A DNA stretch of 64,000 bases, from positions 1 to 64,000 of the forward strand of contig JADGPL010000012.1 of assembly GCA_017882455.1 (NCBI GenBank), in the 5' to 3' direction. The first letter of the stretch is position 1. Each line of letters opens with the position of its first letter. The stretch is from Solirubrobacteraceae bacterium. Its GTDB lineage: Bacteria > Actinomycetota > Thermoleophilia > Solirubrobacterales > Solirubrobacteraceae. A program made the translations under genes and the position numbers. Under the pieces are notes generated by a model. The model was not told where the DNA came from. It saw only the letters and a list, made by a program, of their open reading frames with translations, and did not search any database. Below, piece after piece: positions 3,403-47,612 of this stretch.

Positions 3403-4107
3403 CTATCCCTGCTGGGCAGTCGGCCTGATGAGGATCTCGTTGACGTTGACGTGCGGAGGCTGTGAGGTCGCATAGAGCACGGCCCTCGCGATGTCCTCAT
3501 CCCGCAGGGCATCGGTGGGGCGGTTCTCGAAGAACGGCGTGTCGACCATGCCGGGCTCGATCAGCGTGACGCGCACTCCCGTTCCGTGCAGGTCCTGGCG
3601 CGCGGCCTCGCCCATGGCGGTGACGGCGTGCTTCGTGCACGAGTACATCGAGCCCGGCAACGCGCGCCGGCCGGCCACGCTGGAGGTCAGGAGCAGATGT
3701 CCGCGACTGTCGGTGAGGGCGGGAATCGTCGCCCGCAGGGTCAGGGCGGCCCCGTAGACGTTGGTGAGAACCATCTCCCGCCAGTGCTCGGGGGTGTCCT
3801 TCAGAAAGCCGCGCGGGCCTCCGAAGCCGGCGTTGGCGAACGCCACGTCGATGCGTCCGAATGCCTCCAGGGCGACCTTCACCATTCGCTGCTGCTGCTC
3901 CCACTCGCTCACGTCGCAGCGCACCGCGAGGGCGTGCTCCGGACCGCCCAGCTCCTCGGCCAGCCCCTCCAGGCGCTCCAGCGACCTGGCTGCAAGCACG
4001 AGCCTCCATCCCTCGGCATGGGCGCGGCGGGCCGTGGCCGCGCCGATACCGGATGAGGCGCCGGTGATCAGGAAGACGGGCTGTGGAGAGACGGGCTCGG
4101 TGCTCAT
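3403..4107 (-). CDS. SDR family oxidoreductase
   Basis: NAD(P)-dependent short-chain dehydrogenase of the classical type, 234 residues. The cofactor motif TGASSGIG is at about residues 14-21, NAG at about 84, and a catalytic Ser with Tyr-x-x-x-Lys (YSCTKHAV) near 149. EPGMVDTPFF follows at the usual distance. The start ATG 4107 places the Rossmann glycine motif correctly; an in-frame extension to 4251 runs through the tandem repeat and is not needed. The substrate cannot be predicted. It is transcribed against its neighbours, so it is not part of the ribosomal operon. Confidence 0.88.
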   Translation of the reverse strand: MSTEPVSPQPVFLITGASSGIGAATARRAHAEGWRLVLAARSLERLEGLAEELGGPEHALAVRCDVSEWEQQQRMVKVALEAFGRIDVAFANAGFGGPRGFLKDTPEHWREMVLTNVYGAALTLRATIPALTDSRGHLLLTSSVAGRRALPGSMYSCTKHAVTAMGEAARQDLHGTGVRVTLIEPGMVDTPFFENRPTDALRDEDIARAVLYATSQPPHVNVNEILIRPTAQQG

Positions 4108-4171
4108 GGTGGCGTGCTCCTCGGTTGGGCGTTGACTTGTCCAGCTGATGCTCCCACCCATATCCGATCGC

Positions 4172-4228
4172 GACCCCGCTGCCGGAGGGCGACCCCGCTG
4201 CCGGAGGGCGACCCCGCTGCCGGAGGGC
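4172..4228 (+). repeat. Three tandem 19-bp repeats before obgE
   Basis: The unit GACCCCGCTGCCGGAGGGC is present three times without variation (4172-4190, 4191-4209, 4210-4228). It ends 21 nt before the chosen obgE start. Each unit carries GGAGG, so the array offers repeated Shine-Dalgarno-like sequences. Perfect identity suggests recent expansion, and copy number may vary between strains. Confidence 0.9.
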
Positions 4229-4249: not shown

Positions 4250-5611
4250 ATGCTTCACGATCGCGCGAGGATCCATGTACAGGCCGGGGCCGGCGGGGAC
4301 GGCTGCACGAGCTTTCGTCGCGAAGCGCATGTCCCGCGCGGCGGTCCAGACGGCGGCGACGGCGGGCGCGGGGGGGAGGTGGTCCTCGTCTGCGACGACT
4401 CGCTGCGCGACCTGCAGAGCTTTCGTCGCAAGGCCCACCATTGCGCCGGGCGGGGCGGACACGGCGAAGGGGCGCTGCGCCACGGAGCCGACGGCGAGAC
4501 GCTCGTCATCCGCGTGCCACCGGGCACCGAGATCATCGGGCCGGAGGGGGAGGAGGGCCAGCTCGGGGGGCGGCGATGGGAGCTGCTCGCGGCCGGTCAG
4601 CGTGCCACGGTGGCCCGCGGCGGCAGCGGCGGGAAGGGCAACAAGCGCTTTGCCACGCCCACGCGCCAGGCCCCCCGCTTTGCCGAGCGGGGGCTGCCCG
4701 GGGAGGAAGGCTGGCTCGAGCTGCAGCTGAAGCTGCTGGCGGACGTCGGGCTCGTGGGGCTGCCCAACGCGGGCAAGTCCTCTCTGCTCTCGCGCCTGAC
4801 CCGCGCCGCGCCCAAGATCGCCAGCTACCCCTTCACGACGCTCTCGCCGGTGCTGGGCGTGCTCGAAGGCGCCGAGCGCCAGTTGATCGTGGCTGACATC
4901 CCGGGCCTGATCGAGGGGGCAAGCGACGGAGCGGGCCTCGGACACGACTTCCTGGCGCACGTCGAGCGCACGCGCCTGCTCGTCCACGTCCTCGACCTGG
5001 CCCCGGAGCTCTCCCAGGGAGAGGGCGCGGATGCGGTGACCAACCACGCGACGATCGAGCGTGAGCTGGCAGCTCACGACGAGCGCCTCGCGCGCCTGCC
5101 ACGGATCCTGGCGCTCTCGAAGTCCGACCTGGTGACCGACGAGCAGGCGCGCACAGCCGTGGCACAGTGGCAGCGGCGCCTCGGCTCCGATGTCCTGGTG
5201 ATCGCCACCTCGAGCGCCACCCGCGCAGGCGTCGCACAGCTGAGCGAGGAGCTGCTCAGGCGAGTGGCACCGCTGGGCATCCCCACGTCCGATTCCCCCG
5301 CGGCGCTCACGGCGCCCGCGCGAGCAGGCGCCGATGAGGAGATGGCCGAGTACATGATCTTCCGCCCGGCCACAGCAGGGGGTTTTCGCGTGGAGCGCCT
5401 CGGGCCGGGCGCATTCGCGGTCAGAGGCGCTGGGATCGAGCGCCTGCTCAGGCGTTATGACATCGACAACGAGGACGCCATGGCCTACCTCGAGGGCAGG
5501 TTGCGGCGGATCGGCGTGCTCCGAGCACTGGAGGCGGAGGGCTTTGAGGCGGGGGACGAGATCGAGATCGCCGGGGTGAGCTTCGAGCTGGACCCCAGCG
5601 CCGAGAAATAA
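4250..5611 (+). CDS. obgE: Obg family GTPase
   Basis: Ribosome-assembly and stress GTPase, 453 residues. The order is the glycine-rich Obg domain (DRARIHVQAGAGGDG, FRREAHVPRGGPDGG), the G domain (G1 GLPNAGKSS, G3 DIPGLIEG, G4 SKSD) and a C-terminal OCT domain (FRVERLGPGAFAVRGAGIER). All GTPase motifs look intact. I start at ATG 4250 because family members begin two or three residues before DRA. ATG 4241 is an alternative, and the in-frame ATG 4148 would translate the tandem repeats. It sits between rpmA and proB, as in many actinobacteria. Confidence 0.95.
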   Translation: MLHDRARIHVQAGAGGDGCTSFRREAHVPRGGPDGGDGGRGGEVVLVCDDSLRDLQSFRRKAHHCAGRGGHGEGALRHGADGETLVIRVPPGTEIIGPEGEEGQLGGRRWELLAAGQRATVARGGSGGKGNKRFATPTRQAPRFAERGLPGEEGWLELQLKLLADVGLVGLPNAGKSSLLSRLTRAAPKIASYPFTTLSPVLGVLEGAERQLIVADIPGLIEGASDGAGLGHDFLAHVERTRLLVHVLDLAPELSQGEGADAVTNHATIERELAAHDERLARLPRILALSKSDLVTDEQARTAVAQWQRRLGSDVLVIATSSATRAGVAQLSEELLRRVAPLGIPTSDSPAALTAPARAGADEEMAEYMIFRPATAGGFRVERLGPGAFAVRGAGIERLLRRYDIDNEDAMAYLEGRLRRIGVLRALEAEGFEAGDEIEIAGVSFELDPSAEK

Positions 5612-43360: not shown

Positions 43361-43619
43361 ACGAGCCGGCGAGCGTACGGGCCGCTCGGGACTTCTTGCG
43401 GGCGCCGGTGTTGCGGTGCATGGCGCCGCGCTTGACCGCCTTGTCGATCGTGCTCACGAGCTCTTTGTGAGTGGTCTCGGCGCTCGGCTGGTCCTTCTCC
43501 TGCACCTGTGACTCCAGGCGCCTGAAGTAGGTCTTGATCGTGGAGGTGTAGAGGCGGTTCTCCAAACGCTCGCGCTCGGAGCGAAGGATCCGCTTCTTCT
43601 GGGAATGGATGTTGGCCAT
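43350..43619 (-). CDS. rpsT: 30S ribosomal protein S20
   Basis: Primary 16S-binding protein of 89 residues. ANIHSQKKRILRSERERLEN is the family start, and DKAVKRGAMHRNTGARKKSR is the conserved C-terminal motif. It is a single gene read against leuS and holA. A TATAGT -10 box sits 56 nt upstream of the start. The extra Ser-rich end is within normal variation. Confidence 0.96.
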   Translation of the reverse strand: MANIHSQKKRILRSERERLENRLYTSTIKTYFRRLESQVQEKDQPSAETTHKELVSTIDKAVKRGAMHRNTGARKKSRAARTLAGSSSS

Positions 43620-43674
43620 GATGGAAGCTGCGAGGCGCGGTGAGAAACGGCCCGAGCGCGCCGCAGAGCGCCGT

Positions 43675-43680
43675 ACTATA
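43675..43680 (-). promoter_or_regulatory. -10 box of rpsT
   Basis: TATAGT on the minus strand is a good -10 hexamer and leaves a leader of about 50 nt. No good -35 is seen at 16-18 bp. Its presence argues that the upstream extension of the murJ frame over this segment is not translated. Confidence 0.45.
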
Positions 43681-43755
43681 GCGGCCTTGCCCGCCGCCGC
43701 AGATCCCCCCGTAGTGGAGCCGCCAGGTCCGGTCCCTCCCCGCGGCGGGCGCGGC

Positions 43756-45324
43756 GTGGCACGGAACACGGCGATCTTCTCGGTGGCCACCGGCATCTCG
43801 CGGGTGGTGGGTCTCGGCAGGGAAATCGTGACGGCGAGCTTCTTCGGTACGGGAGGGCCGTACTCGGCCTTCACGATCGCCTTCCAGATCCCGAACCTCG
43901 TGGCCAACCTGTTCGCCAACGCGGCCCTCTCGGCGGCGTTCGTGCCGGTGTTCACCGAACTGCTCCACCAGGGCAGGCGCAAAGACGCGCTGCGCCTGGC
44001 CTCGACGCTGTTCTGGATCATGCTGATCGGCCTGGGCGCCATCACGGCCTTCTTCATCCTCGGAGCCGGGGTGATCATGCCGCTGTTCGCCGGCAACGCC
44101 TTCAACGGCGCCCTGGACTCGCTGATGGTGAGCCTCTCCCAGATCCTCTTTCCGGTCGTGCTGATCCTGGGCCTCAACGGCCTGCTCGTGGGGGTGCTCC
44201 AGTCCTACGACCACTTCTCCATCCCGGCCATCTCGCCGGCCGTCTGGAACATCGTGATCCTCGTCCTGCTGGTGCTCCTGCGCCCACACTTCCATGGCGG
44301 CTACCACAACGGCAACCAGCTCCACGCCTACGCCATAGCGATCCTCGTGGCGACCTTCGTGCAGCTCCTGCTCGCCGTGGCGGCGCTGCGGCGGATCGAC
44401 TTCCGGCTGCAGTTCTCGATCGACTGGCACGACCCTCGCATCAAGCAGGTCTTCACGCTGATGCTCCCGGTGACGATCGGTCTCGGGATCGTCAACCTCG
44501 ACCAGCTCATCAACTCGGTCTTCGGAACCCTCGTCAGCTCGGAAGCGCCGCGCGCCATCGACAACGCGTTCCGGGTCTACATGCTCCCGCAGGGTCTCTT
44601 CAGCGTCGCGGTCGCCACGGTGCTGTTCCCAACCCTCAGCCGCATGGCTGCCGGGGGAGACGCCTCCGGGATGCGGCGGGCCGTCGGCACGGGGATGCGC
44701 CAGATCAACCTGCTGCTGATCCCGGCTGCCGCCTTCATGATCGTGCTGTCCACGCCGATCGTGCGCCTGCTCTTCCAGCGCGGGAACTTCAACGGCAGAT
44801 CCACCGAACTGGTGTCCCTGGCCCTGTTCTGGTTCGCCTTCAGCCTGCCCTTCGGGGGCCTGAACCTCCTGCTCACGCGAACCTTCTTCGCAGTGCAGCG
44901 TCCGTGGATCCCGACGAGCCTGGCCGCCATGAACATCGTCGTGGACGTCGTGGTCAGCGTGGGTCTATACAAGCCACTCGGCATCTCGGGTCTGATCATC
45001 GGCACCGTCGTGGCCAACGCCGTGATGACGGCCCTCCAACTCCATCGCCTGCGTATCGGCTTCAACGGTCGCCTGGAAGGCGCCCAGACGACGATGATCA
45101 CCGTGCGGATCACGGCGGCCTCGGTGCTCCTCGGGGCGGTCGCGTGGGTGGTGTGGAGGCTCCTCGAGAGTCTCCTCGGAGTCTCGCTGCCGGCTCAGAT
45201 CGTGAGCGTTGGGGCGGCGGCCGCCGCGGGCCTGTTCGTCTACTCGCGGGCCGTCCTCGCCATGCGGGTACCCGAGGCCCACCAGGTCAGCCGCCTGATC
45301 CGGGCCCAGCTCGGCCGGGCCTGA
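43756..45324 (+). CDS. murJ: Lipid II flippase MurJ
   Basis: Moves lipid II across the membrane for peptidoglycan synthesis, about 522 residues and 14 predicted helices. ARNTAIFSVATGISRVVGLG with REIVTASFFG is the conserved first helix with its Arg. PFGGLNLLLTRTFFAVQRPW and the charged cavity residues of later helices are also typical. I start at GTG 43756, at the family's usual Met position. Upstream ATGs at 43618 and 43621 add a Pro/Arg-rich segment overlapping the rpsT promoter. Confidence 0.9.
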   Translation: MARNTAIFSVATGISRVVGLGREIVTASFFGTGGPYSAFTIAFQIPNLVANLFANAALSAAFVPVFTELLHQGRRKDALRLASTLFWIMLIGLGAITAFFILGAGVIMPLFAGNAFNGALDSLMVSLSQILFPVVLILGLNGLLVGVLQSYDHFSIPAISPAVWNIVILVLLVLLRPHFHGGYHNGNQLHAYAIAILVATFVQLLLAVAALRRIDFRLQFSIDWHDPRIKQVFTLMLPVTIGLGIVNLDQLINSVFGTLVSSEAPRAIDNAFRVYMLPQGLFSVAVATVLFPTLSRMAAGGDASGMRRAVGTGMRQINLLLIPAAAFMIVLSTPIVRLLFQRGNFNGRSTELVSLALFWFAFSLPFGGLNLLLTRTFFAVQRPWIPTSLAAMNIVVDVVVSVGLYKPLGISGLIIGTVVANAVMTALQLHRLRIGFNGRLEGAQTTMITVRITAASVLLGAVAWVVWRLLESLLGVSLPAQIVSVGAAAAAGLFVYSRAVLAMRVPEAHQVSRLIRAQLGRA

Positions 45325-45341
45325 GTGTCGCCCTTCGTTGG

Positions 45342-45363
45342 GTGTATAGCCATGGTTATACGC
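45342..45363. repeat. 22-bp palindrome after murJ, related to 2931-2952
   Basis: The arms GTGTATAGCCA and TGGTTATACGC are inverted copies with two mismatches. It begins 17 nt after the murJ stop. The outer flanks also pair, so a transcript could form a long hairpin, consistent with a terminator. Confidence 0.6.
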
Positions 45364-45452
45364 TCCCCCGAACGAGGGATAACCCACGCGGCTGGTCCGT
45401 CGCGTCGCGGCCGGGCCTGGGTGCATGCGCCGGATGACAAGGCCGAGCAGAG

Positions 45453-45478
45453 GCCGGGTGGGCCAAGGCCCACCCGGC
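45453..45478. repeat. 12-bp perfect inverted repeat with 2-nt spacer
   Basis: GCCGGGTGGGCC and its exact complement GGCCCACCCGGC are separated by AA. The very short spacer favours a DNA cruciform or protein site over an RNA hairpin, which would need to open the innermost pairs. Confidence 0.7.
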
Positions 45479-45515
45479 ATGCGCCCGAACAAAGATCGCC
45501 GCTTACTACTTACGT

Positions 45516-45640
45516 CCCAGGACTGTGTGTCTATGCCTGGGCGGCTTGACACTCTCGACCCCTGGACTGGCCGCACCCGAGGGTGCGCGTTGCCGAGGTT
45601 GGGCCTCGAAGGCCCATAGTCGAGTAGGCGATCCGCCGGA
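45516..45640 (+). ncRNA. Candidate structured RNA or leader of lepA
   Basis: Several stems fit together. CCCAGG (45516) pairs with CCTGGG (45536). GGCGG (45540-45544) pairs with CCGCC (45633-45637) around an inner CTCGAC (45554-45559)/GTCGAG (45619-45624) stem. That encloses two hairpins, CGCACC-CGAG-GGTGCG (45572-45587) and TGGGCC-TCGAA-GGCCCA (45600-45616). The first stem competes with the second at one to two bases. Orientation and function are guesses. Confidence 0.35.
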
Positions 45641-45694
45641 GCATCCAAGGCTAGCGGGTCGGCGCCCGCCCCAGGACCGTCTTCATATCTCGCT

Positions 45695-45766
45695 CCGGTG
45701 GGCGCATGCGCCCACCGGCGGGTCCGCGCATGCGCGGACCCGGGCAACGCCGCATGCGGCGTTGCC
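45695..45766. repeat. Three contiguous perfect 24-bp palindromes centred on GCATGC
   Basis: Palindrome 1 (45695-45718) has arm CCGGTGGGCGCA, palindrome 2 (45719-45742) CGGGTCCGCGCA, palindrome 3 (45743-45766) GGCAACGCCGCA. Each is followed by its exact reverse complement. They abut with no spacer, share only the central GCATGC and differ in the arms. The block ends 25 nt before the lepA start. Confidence 0.95.
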
Positions 45767-45791
45767 TCACCATCTATCGTGACGCCCAGCC

Positions 45792-47612
45792 ATGGACCAG
45801 TCCCACATCCGCAACTTCTCGATCATCGCCCACATCGACCACGGCAAGTCGACGCTGGCCGATCGCATCCTCGAGCTGACCCACACGGTGGCCCCCCGCG
45901 AGATGCGAGCGCAGCTGCTGGACTCGATGGACCTGGAGCGCGAGCGGGGGATCACGATCAAGGCCCAGGCGGTGCGGGTCTTCTTCACGGCCGGCGACGG
46001 GGAGACCTACCAGCTGCACCTGATCGACACCCCCGGGCACGTGGACTTCACCTACGAGGTCTCCCGCTCGCTGGAGGCGTGCGAGGGAGCCCTGCTCGTG
46101 GTGGACGCCTCCCAGGGGGTGGAGGCGCAGACGGTGGCCAACACCTACCTGGCAGTCGAAGCCGGCCTCGAGCTGATCCCCTGCCTGAACAAGATCGACC
46201 TGCCCGGCGCCGAGCCCGAGCGGGTGGCGGGCGAAGTGAGCGACCTGATCGGCGAGCCGCCCGATTCGATCCTGAAGATCAGCGGCAAGACCGGAGAGGG
46301 AGTGGGGGAGGTGCTCGAGGAGCTCGTCAGGCGGGTCCCACCCCCGGCGGGCGACCCCGACGGTCCGCCGCGGGCGCTGATCTTCGACTCCGAGTTCGAC
46401 CAGTACCGCGGCGTGATCGCCTACATAAGGGTCGTGGATGGCGTCTTTCGTAAGGGCGAGCCGATCCGGGCGATGGCGGCGGGCACGGAGGCCGACATCG
46501 ACGACCTCGGCTTCTTCAGCCCGCAGATGATGCCCACCGATCAGCTGGCAGCGGGCGAGGTGGGCTACCTGATCACGGGCCTGAAGGACGTGACCCTGCT
46601 GCGTGTGGGAGACACCCTGACCACGCGCAAGAGCTCCGCTGGGCACGCATCGGAAGCCACCGAGCCACTCCCCGGATACCGCGAGGTCAAGCCGATGGTC
46701 TTCTGCGGCCTGTTCCCGATCGACTCCGACACCTACCCGGACCTGCGCGACGCGCTGGAAAAGCTCGTGCTCAACGACGCCGCCCTCTCGTGGGAGCCCG
46801 AGACCTCGGACGCGCTCGGCTTCGGCTTCCGCTGTGGATTTCTCGGCCTGCTGCACATGGACATAGTCAAAGAGCGCCTGGAACGCGAGTACGACCTGGA
46901 GCTGCTGGCCACGATGCCATCGGTGGAGTTCGACGTGACGATGACGAACGGCGAGGAGCTCGAGGTCCACAACCCTTCGGACATGCCCGATCCGGGCACG
47001 ATCGAGGAGATCCGCGAGCCGTTCATCCGCGCCTCTGTGATCGCCCCGAAAGAGTTCGTGGGAGCCGTCATGGAGCTCTGCCAGGAACGCCGCGGTGAGC
47101 ACATCGGCATGCACTACCTCTCCCCGGAGCGCGTGCAGATGACCTATGACCTGCCGCTCGCGGAAATCGTGCTCGACTTCTTCGACCAGCTGAAGTCGCG
47201 CACCCGCGGCTATGCCTCACTCGACTACGAGCTCAACGGCATGAAGCCCTCGGATCTGGTCAAGCTCGACGTGCTGCTCGCCGGGGACACCGTGGATGCC
47301 CTCTCGATGGTGGTGCACCGCGACAAGGCCTATGAGATGGGACGCACGCTCACCGAGAAGCTGCGCAAGCGGATCCCCCGCCAGCAGTACGACGTGCCGA
47401 TCCAGGCCGCCATCGGCGCCCACGTGATCGCGCGGGAGACCGTGAAAGCCTTCCGCAAGGACGTGATCGCGGGCTGCTACGGCGGGGACATCACGCGCAA
47501 GAAAAAGCTTCTCGCCAAACAGAAGGAGGGCAAGAAGCGGATGAAGCAGGTCGGCCGCGTGGAGGTCCCCCAGGAGGCCTTCCTGGCGGTGCTGGAGCTC
47601 GGCGAGGACTGA
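45792..47612 (+). CDS. lepA: Elongation factor 4 (LepA)
   Basis: Ribosome-associated translational GTPase, 606 residues. G1 [10 protein letters not shown]2/G3 region ERGITIKAQ and DTPGH, and G4 NKID are intact. The LepA-specific C-terminal domain is present ([20 protein letters not shown], then [20 protein letters not shown]). ATG 45792 fits the family start ([19 protein letters not shown]). The gene follows the palindrome block. Confidence 0.97.

What the first reader, a model, noticed from the sequence alone, without database searches (positions are those of the whole stretch)
45695..45766. Three perfect 24-bp palindromes in exact tandem before lepA
Each palindrome is perfect over 24 bp, they abut without a spacer, and all centre on GCATGC, yet their arms differ. 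Chance formation is very unlikely, and neither duplication nor REP-type repeats would give different arms. Spacing of 24 bp puts centres about two helical turns apart. It could be a multimeric protein site, a cruciform array or an unusual leader.
Basis: seen in the sequence. Interest (0 to 1): 0.85.

Follow-up and report, generated by a model that had tools for sequence, protein, structure and literature searches.

The report
Dispersed triple-hairpin repeats with changing arms
The three abutting perfect palindromes before lepA are one copy of an apparently undescribed family of dispersed DNA elements in soil Solirubrobacteraceae, in which the ability of each 24-bp unit to fold on itself is kept for long periods while the letters of its arms keep changing.

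Summary
Window 45695-45766 holds three abutting perfect 24-bp palindromes, the only perfect 24-bp ones in 64 kb (expected about 0.02; three abutting about 2e-15).

They are one copy of a dispersed family. The same genome holds more than 20 arrays, usually 3-5 units at 24 (23-25) bp pitch, all centred on YRCA|TGYR. 29 of 146 sampled genomes of the family (Solirubrobacteraceae, patchily) carry them. None was found in other families of the class or in a phylum sample. In the other genera nearly every array has exactly three units (125 of 134 perfect).

The arms vary almost freely, but both arms change together. Ten independent orthologous array pairs show 45 two-sided against 9 one-sided changes; one genome's paralogues show 477 against 1. 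About half or more are transversions. The murJ-lepA array is shared with a sister species and differs by two two-sided transversions. Arrays sit just 3' of stop codons, in either orientation, beside unrelated genes.

Best reading: REP-like, non-autonomous hairpin elements, kept symmetric by arm-to-arm copying (template switching) in folded single-stranded DNA. No RAYT transposase is found in nearly all carriers, so this is not REP proper. The lepA-leader reading is unlikely; a physiological role is unproven.

The parts
45695..45718 (.). palindrome unit 1 (A type, CCGGTGGGCGCA|TGCGCCCACCGG); folds as a 10-bp stem with a CATG loop
45719..45742 (.). palindrome unit 2 (B type, CGGGTCCGCGCA|TGCGCGGACCCG)
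45743..45766 (.). palindrome unit 3 (C type, GGCAACGCCGCA|TGCGGCGTTGCC); identical in the sister species
45692..45694 (+). flank at the A end: GCT here, GTT in the orthologue (L131) and in many copies of the family (terminal motif GATGNTGTT)
45775..45780 (+). probable -10 element (TATCGT) of lepA, conserved with its context in array-less relatives; it puts the array outside the lepA transcript (inferred)
45792..47612 (+). lepA (EF4) coding sequence, the downstream neighbour
43609..45324 (+). murJ coding sequence, the upstream neighbour (Pfam MurJ, E 1e-86)

Best explanation
The triplet is one copy of a family of dispersed, non-coding hairpin elements of Solirubrobacteraceae, which I propose work like REP elements. 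The element is a short terminal motif (GTT, extended GATGNTGTT) followed by three or more abutting 24-bp perfect palindromes with core YRCATGYR. SHOWN: the family exists, is patchy, sits 3' of genes in either orientation, is present or absent at the same site in different species, persists at some orthologous sites, and has arms that change on both sides together. INFERRED: (1) what matters is folding of one strand into a row of 10-bp hairpins with CATG loops, most likely in single-stranded DNA at the replication fork; (2) perfect symmetry is renewed mainly by polymerase template switching inside each hairpin (quasipalindrome correction), which copies a mutation in one arm into the other, and only secondarily by selection on the fold; (3) copies spread through an unidentified enzyme that recognises the folded row plus its terminal motif. 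The copy before lepA lies between the lepA promoter and a probable minus-strand RNA gene, and is a passenger or boundary there, not a leader.
For: Family: 69 paired-centre hits in the own genome against 4 for the reversed control; triple pattern 24 against 0; 29 true carriers among 146 family genomes; none outside the family in 329 class and 396 phylum genomes apart from one non-palindromic chance hit; all 23 palindromic four-unit arrays among 84,980 GTDB species lie in Solirubrobacterales/Solirubrobacteraceae MAGs, while the other hits show no such palindromic arrays, mostly direct tandem repeats. Structure rather than sequence: 171 of 245 (g1) and 125 of 134 (other genera) units perfect, 133 distinct perfect halves in g1, pairing ending at bp 12. 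Both arms change together: 45 two-sided against 9 one-sided changes in ten independent orthologous pairs, and 105 of 222 two-sided changes over all pairs are transversions; 477 against 1 in G140 paralogues. At this locus there are two two-sided transversions against the sister species. Mismatched stem pairs show no GU preference (GU 3, AC 5, other 18 of 1206). Arrays lie at a median 25 and 8 nt from stop codons; GTT-end orientation relative to transcription is 12 same and 11 opposite. Sites L079 and L087 are empty in 7 and 6 relatives. A terminal motif stands above control. Flanking genes are mostly unrelated housekeeping genes. Full SbcD is absent from all 29 carriers but present in 33 of 117 non-carriers (p 3e-4, confounded by phylogeny). 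E. coli reporters with an 18-bp quasipalindrome undergo template switching that perfects the repeat (PMC7202029).
Against: No mobilising enzyme was found. Copies within a genome are mostly under 95% identical, so no burst of transposition is visible in g1. Template switching alone does not explain the fixed 24-bp unit, the fixed CATG/YR core or the recurrent number three, so something must recognise the element. The GU test has little power here, because ordinary 3' hairpins found by my scan show no GU excess either. Strong RNA hairpins downstream of genes are also expected. Gene calls were made with a home-made caller on fragmented MAGs.
Confidence: 0.5

Rival explanations
1. RNA element: the row of hairpins is made in the 3' part of transcripts, where it ends transcription (bidirectional, U-tract-less terminator) or shields mRNA ends, and selection on RNA pairing gives the compensatory changes.
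For: Arrays lie just 3' of stop codons, 30 of 37 tandem arrays are nearer the upstream stop than the downstream start, divergent gaps are avoided (10 of 96 against 45 of 181 background gaps, p 0.004), and the RNA fold is very stable (-63.6 kcal/mol, z -7).
Against: No GU preference in mismatched pairs, and about half of the two-sided changes are transversions, which cannot pass through a GU pair. At L079 and L128 a separate ordinary hairpin, terminator-like, lies beyond the array. Before lepA the array seems to lie upstream of the promoter. Many orthologous sites in relatives do without it. Avoidance of promoters and genes would also follow from insertion tolerance.
Confidence: 0.27
2. Row of duplex binding sites for a dimeric DNA-binding or nucleoid protein contacting YRCATGYR at 24-bp pitch.
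For: Core YRCA|TGYR is almost invariant; regular pitch; recurrent number three.
Against: A duplex-binding protein does not require outer arms that are perfectly self-complementary but free in sequence; the variable pairs of each unit covary. Pitch shifts of 23-25 bp would rotate sites relative to each other.
Confidence: 0.13
3. Passive debris: a once-mobile element whose symmetry is only maintained mutationally, with no function now.
For: Patchy presence, empty sites, imperfect units in g1 (74 of 245), no regulon.
Against: Core, unit length and arrays at orthologous sites persist across species whose flanking DNA differs by roughly 10-20%; in g2 and g39 nearly all units are perfect.
Confidence: 0.1

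Closest known systems
REP / BIME / REPIN elements (GTAG- and CGTC-tagged palindromes; PMC3733652, PMC8266576)
   Same: Short intergenic hairpin repeats, several units combined, a short conserved tag at one end, dispersed between genes, patchy between relatives
   Different: REPs are families of similar sequence preceded by GTAG (or CGTC), in E. coli with essential stem mismatches; here arms are free, stems perfect, units abut head to tail at 24 bp, the tag is GTT, and no Y1/RAYT transposase gene is found in nearly all carriers
Quasipalindrome correction by template switching (PMC7202029)
   Same: A process that makes imperfect inverted repeats perfect by copying one arm from the other; explains two-sided changes including transversions
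   Different: It is a mutational process, not an element; it does not set unit length, core or number
Organellar palindromic and hairpin elements (Volvox organelle palindromes PMC2670323; sponge mitochondrial hairpin elements PMC2800124)
   Same: Selfish-looking intergenic hairpin repeats; comparison rests on titles and abstracts only
   Different: Organelles; I did not find there the abutting triple perfect palindromes with free arms
Tandem intrinsic terminators
   Same: GC-rich hairpins in a row after genes
   Different: No U tract; separate adjacent hairpin at L079 and L128; strict unit size and core; either orientation

Membership tests
REP/RAYT (REPtron) elements | conserved GTAG (or CGTC) tetranucleotide at the foot of the hairpin | tested here: not met
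   terminal motif is GTT/GATGNTGTT at one end
REP/RAYT (REPtron) elements | associated Y1 (HUH) tyrosine transposase in the genome | tested here: not met
   PF01797 found in 1 of 24 genus genomes and 1 of 11 carriers of other genera, though the control genomes ring; MAGs are incomplete
REP/RAYT (REPtron) elements | multi-copy, intergenic, palindromic, dispersed | tested here: met
   1-26 triple hits per carrier genome, intergenic, unrelated flanking genes
REP/RAYT (REPtron) elements | copies alike in sequence within a genome | tested here: not met
   best within-genome identity mostly 0.7-0.9
Structured RNA element / known Rfam family | match to an Rfam covariance model | tested here: not met
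   no match near a gathering score at window 45000-46500
Structured RNA element / known Rfam family | transcribed and functional as RNA | not testable with these tools
   no transcript data; GU test uninformative by its own control
Insertion sequence / MITE | target-site duplication and terminal inverted repeats | tested here: inconclusive
   empty sites exist but spacer DNA is too diverged to read a duplication
Intrinsic terminator | hairpin followed by a U tract in the sense of transcription | tested here: not met
   flanks carry GTT before and AAC after, no T run

The most novel reading that the evidence does not exclude
A class of bacterial mobile or chromosomal element defined by fold alone: a row of three perfect hairpins recognised as folded single-stranded DNA by an unknown enzyme, whose arm sequences are left free and are actively re-symmetrised, so that the element evolves by whole base pairs.
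Probability: 0.3. Interest if true: 0.88.

Novelty: new variant of a known kind. Interest (0 to 1): 0.72.

Why it matters
It is a natural record, in hundreds of units, of base pairs changing two sides at a time, so it allows arm-to-arm copying in palindromes to be separated from selection on structure. It also adds a hairpin-repeat family outside the REP/RAYT system in a poorly studied soil lineage, with a testable link to absence of the palindrome nuclease SbcCD, and points to an unknown recognising enzyme.

Tried and rejected
Chance and assembly artefact: rejected. Genus restriction: first believed from the four-unit scan and 37 outgroup genomes, then corrected, because exactly-three-unit arrays occur in three further genera of the family. 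Classical REP/RAYT: rejected on tag, transposase and sequence identity. lepA leader: unlikely. Regulon: flanking genes are mostly unrelated (three sigma-70 factors, two FtsZ and two aldehyde dehydrogenases among 52, some possibly orthologues). Viral carriers: none of nine viral hits is a palindromic array. Known RNA family: none. GU bias as a strand test: uninformative by its own control. Recent copying as the reason for the 93% match of L131 to L090: not pursued, since the true orthologue matches as well. Hit G069 is a direct repeat and hit G430 is non-palindromic; neither is counted as a carrier. No papers were found on such tandem palindromes; the library is incomplete.

Full report
OBSERVATION. 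They are the only perfect 24-bp palindromes in the 64 kb; 0.019 are expected, and three abutting by chance has a probability of about 2e-15. As single-stranded DNA the stretch folds into exactly three 10-bp hairpins with CATG loops (-42.3 kcal/mol, z -8.2); as RNA likewise (-63.6, z -7.0).

A FAMILY, NOT A SINGLE CURIOSITY. A search of the own genome (3.31 Mb) with the element found about 15 further places, and inspection showed the same architecture with other arms. A pattern of two centres at 24+-1 bp gave 69 hits against 4 for the reversed pattern. In 66 arrays (245 units), nearly all from genus g1 genomes, 171 units are perfect, the core is YRCA|TGYR in all but a few units, the arms are variable (133 distinct perfect halves), pairing ends at bp 12, and the pitch is 24 (118), 25 (36) or 23 (21) bp. 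Units differ by position in the array, e.g. CCGGTCGGYRCA, then CGGGGCCGCACA, then RRCAGGGCCGCA, so the array has a direction.

DISTRIBUTION. Record titles of matching contigs place the carriers in Solirubrobacterales/Solirubrobacteraceae MAGs, mostly from soil judging by isolate names. In the genus 18 of 24 genomes have triple hits. Over the family, 30 of 146 genomes match; one of these (G069) is a direct repeat, leaving 29 carriers in genera g1, g2, g39 and g14, often with close relatives that have none. No genome outside the family matched in a class sample of 329, and in a phylum sample of 396 only one non-palindromic chance hit appeared. Among 84,980 GTDB species, 57 stretches match a four-unit pattern; the 23 that are palindromic arrays are all Solirubrobacterales/Solirubrobacteraceae and the others are not, being mostly direct tandem repeats. 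In the other genera 44 of 45 arrays have exactly three units and 125 of 134 units are perfect.

HOW THE ARMS CHANGE. The array before lepA has an orthologue in G022 (L131): same place, same third unit, first and second units differing by one two-sided transversion each (G:C to C:G; T:A to G:C) plus one one-sided change at the outermost pair. Fourteen such orthologous groups were found. In ten pairs taken as independent, 45 changes are two-sided and keep pairing, 9 are one-sided, and 5 changed on both sides without pairing. Over all ortholog comparisons it is 222 to 33, and one-sided changes cluster at the outermost pair. 105 of the 222 are transversions. Among 14 paralogous arrays of G140 it is 477 to 1, with 282 transversions (these pairs are not independent). 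RNA helices usually move through GU pairs (general knowledge); here intermediates of any kind are rare and GU is not favoured (3 GU, 5 AC, 18 other of 1206). That GU comparison is weak, because ordinary 3' hairpins found by the same script show no GU excess either. The simplest process that changes both arms at once is template switching within the hairpin, established for E. coli with an 18-bp quasipalindrome (PMC7202029). This step is inferred.

WHERE THEY SIT. With a simple codon-based gene caller, 96 classifiable arrays in all genera lie in 28 convergent, 58 tandem and 10 divergent gaps (background gaps 25, 111 and 45; divergent p 0.004). Median distance to a stop codon is 25 nt (g1) and 8 nt (others). 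The GTT end points along transcription 12 times and against it 11 times. Flanking genes are mostly unrelated housekeeping functions. At L079 and L087 the array is present only in the own genome and absent from 7 and 6 relatives; at L079 and L128 a separate terminator-like hairpin lies beyond the array. The outer flanks carry a motif, GATGNTGTT at one end, with log-likelihood 283 and 251 against 90 and 78 for DNA 15 bp further out. Before lepA, the conserved CACCATCTATCGTGACG followed by ATG in array-bearing and array-less species marks the promoter, leaving the array upstream of the transcript (promoter assignment is by conservation only).

WHAT MOBILISES OR TOLERATES THEM. The REP transposase family PF01797 is missing from 23 of 24 genus genomes and 10 of 11 other carriers, so a RAYT is not the explanation. 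A full SbcD (palindrome/hairpin nuclease) scores above the curated cut-off in 33 of 146 family genomes and in none of the 29 carriers (Fisher p 3e-4). The three SbcD-positive genomes inside genera g1 and g39 (G008, G110, G115) have no arrays. Shared ancestry could produce this association, and 24-bp palindromes are far below the size usually linked to SbcCD, so it is a lead only.

VERDICT. A real, apparently undescribed family of dispersed triple-hairpin elements, defined by fold and an 8-bp core instead of sequence. It works most like REP/BIME elements but fails three of their tests (tag, transposase, sequence identity). The most likely basis is folded single-stranded DNA with arm-to-arm copying (0.5); the main rival is a 3' RNA element (0.27).

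Noticed in passing
window 45440-45655, minus strand: A stretch of about 200 nt between murJ and the array is strongly conserved across the genus, is inverted in G020 (L139), ends in a GC-rich hairpin (GCCGGGTGGGCC..GGCCCACCCGGC), has a -10-like TAGCCT at 45653-45648 and 5'/3' ends that can pair (z -3.0). It looks like an unannotated structured RNA (6S-like?) with no Rfam match.
   Followed up: partly
L124 about 4060-4200 and L091 about 4930-4990: Another palindrome-bearing repeat, around TATAACCATGGTTATAC, lies next to arrays in two genomes.
   Followed up: no
family genomes (G000-G169): SbcD above cut-off is absent from all 29 array carriers and present in 33 of 117 non-carriers.
   Followed up: partly
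upstream of lepA in L133-L152: A lepA -10-like motif TCTANNNT lies so close to the ATG in most species that the mRNA is probably leaderless or nearly so.
   Followed up: no
L222, L223, L225 (viral contigs): Viral contigs with tandem repeats around GAGACAACGCATGCGTT in which only an end unit is nearly palindromic; unrelated to the family.
   Followed up: no
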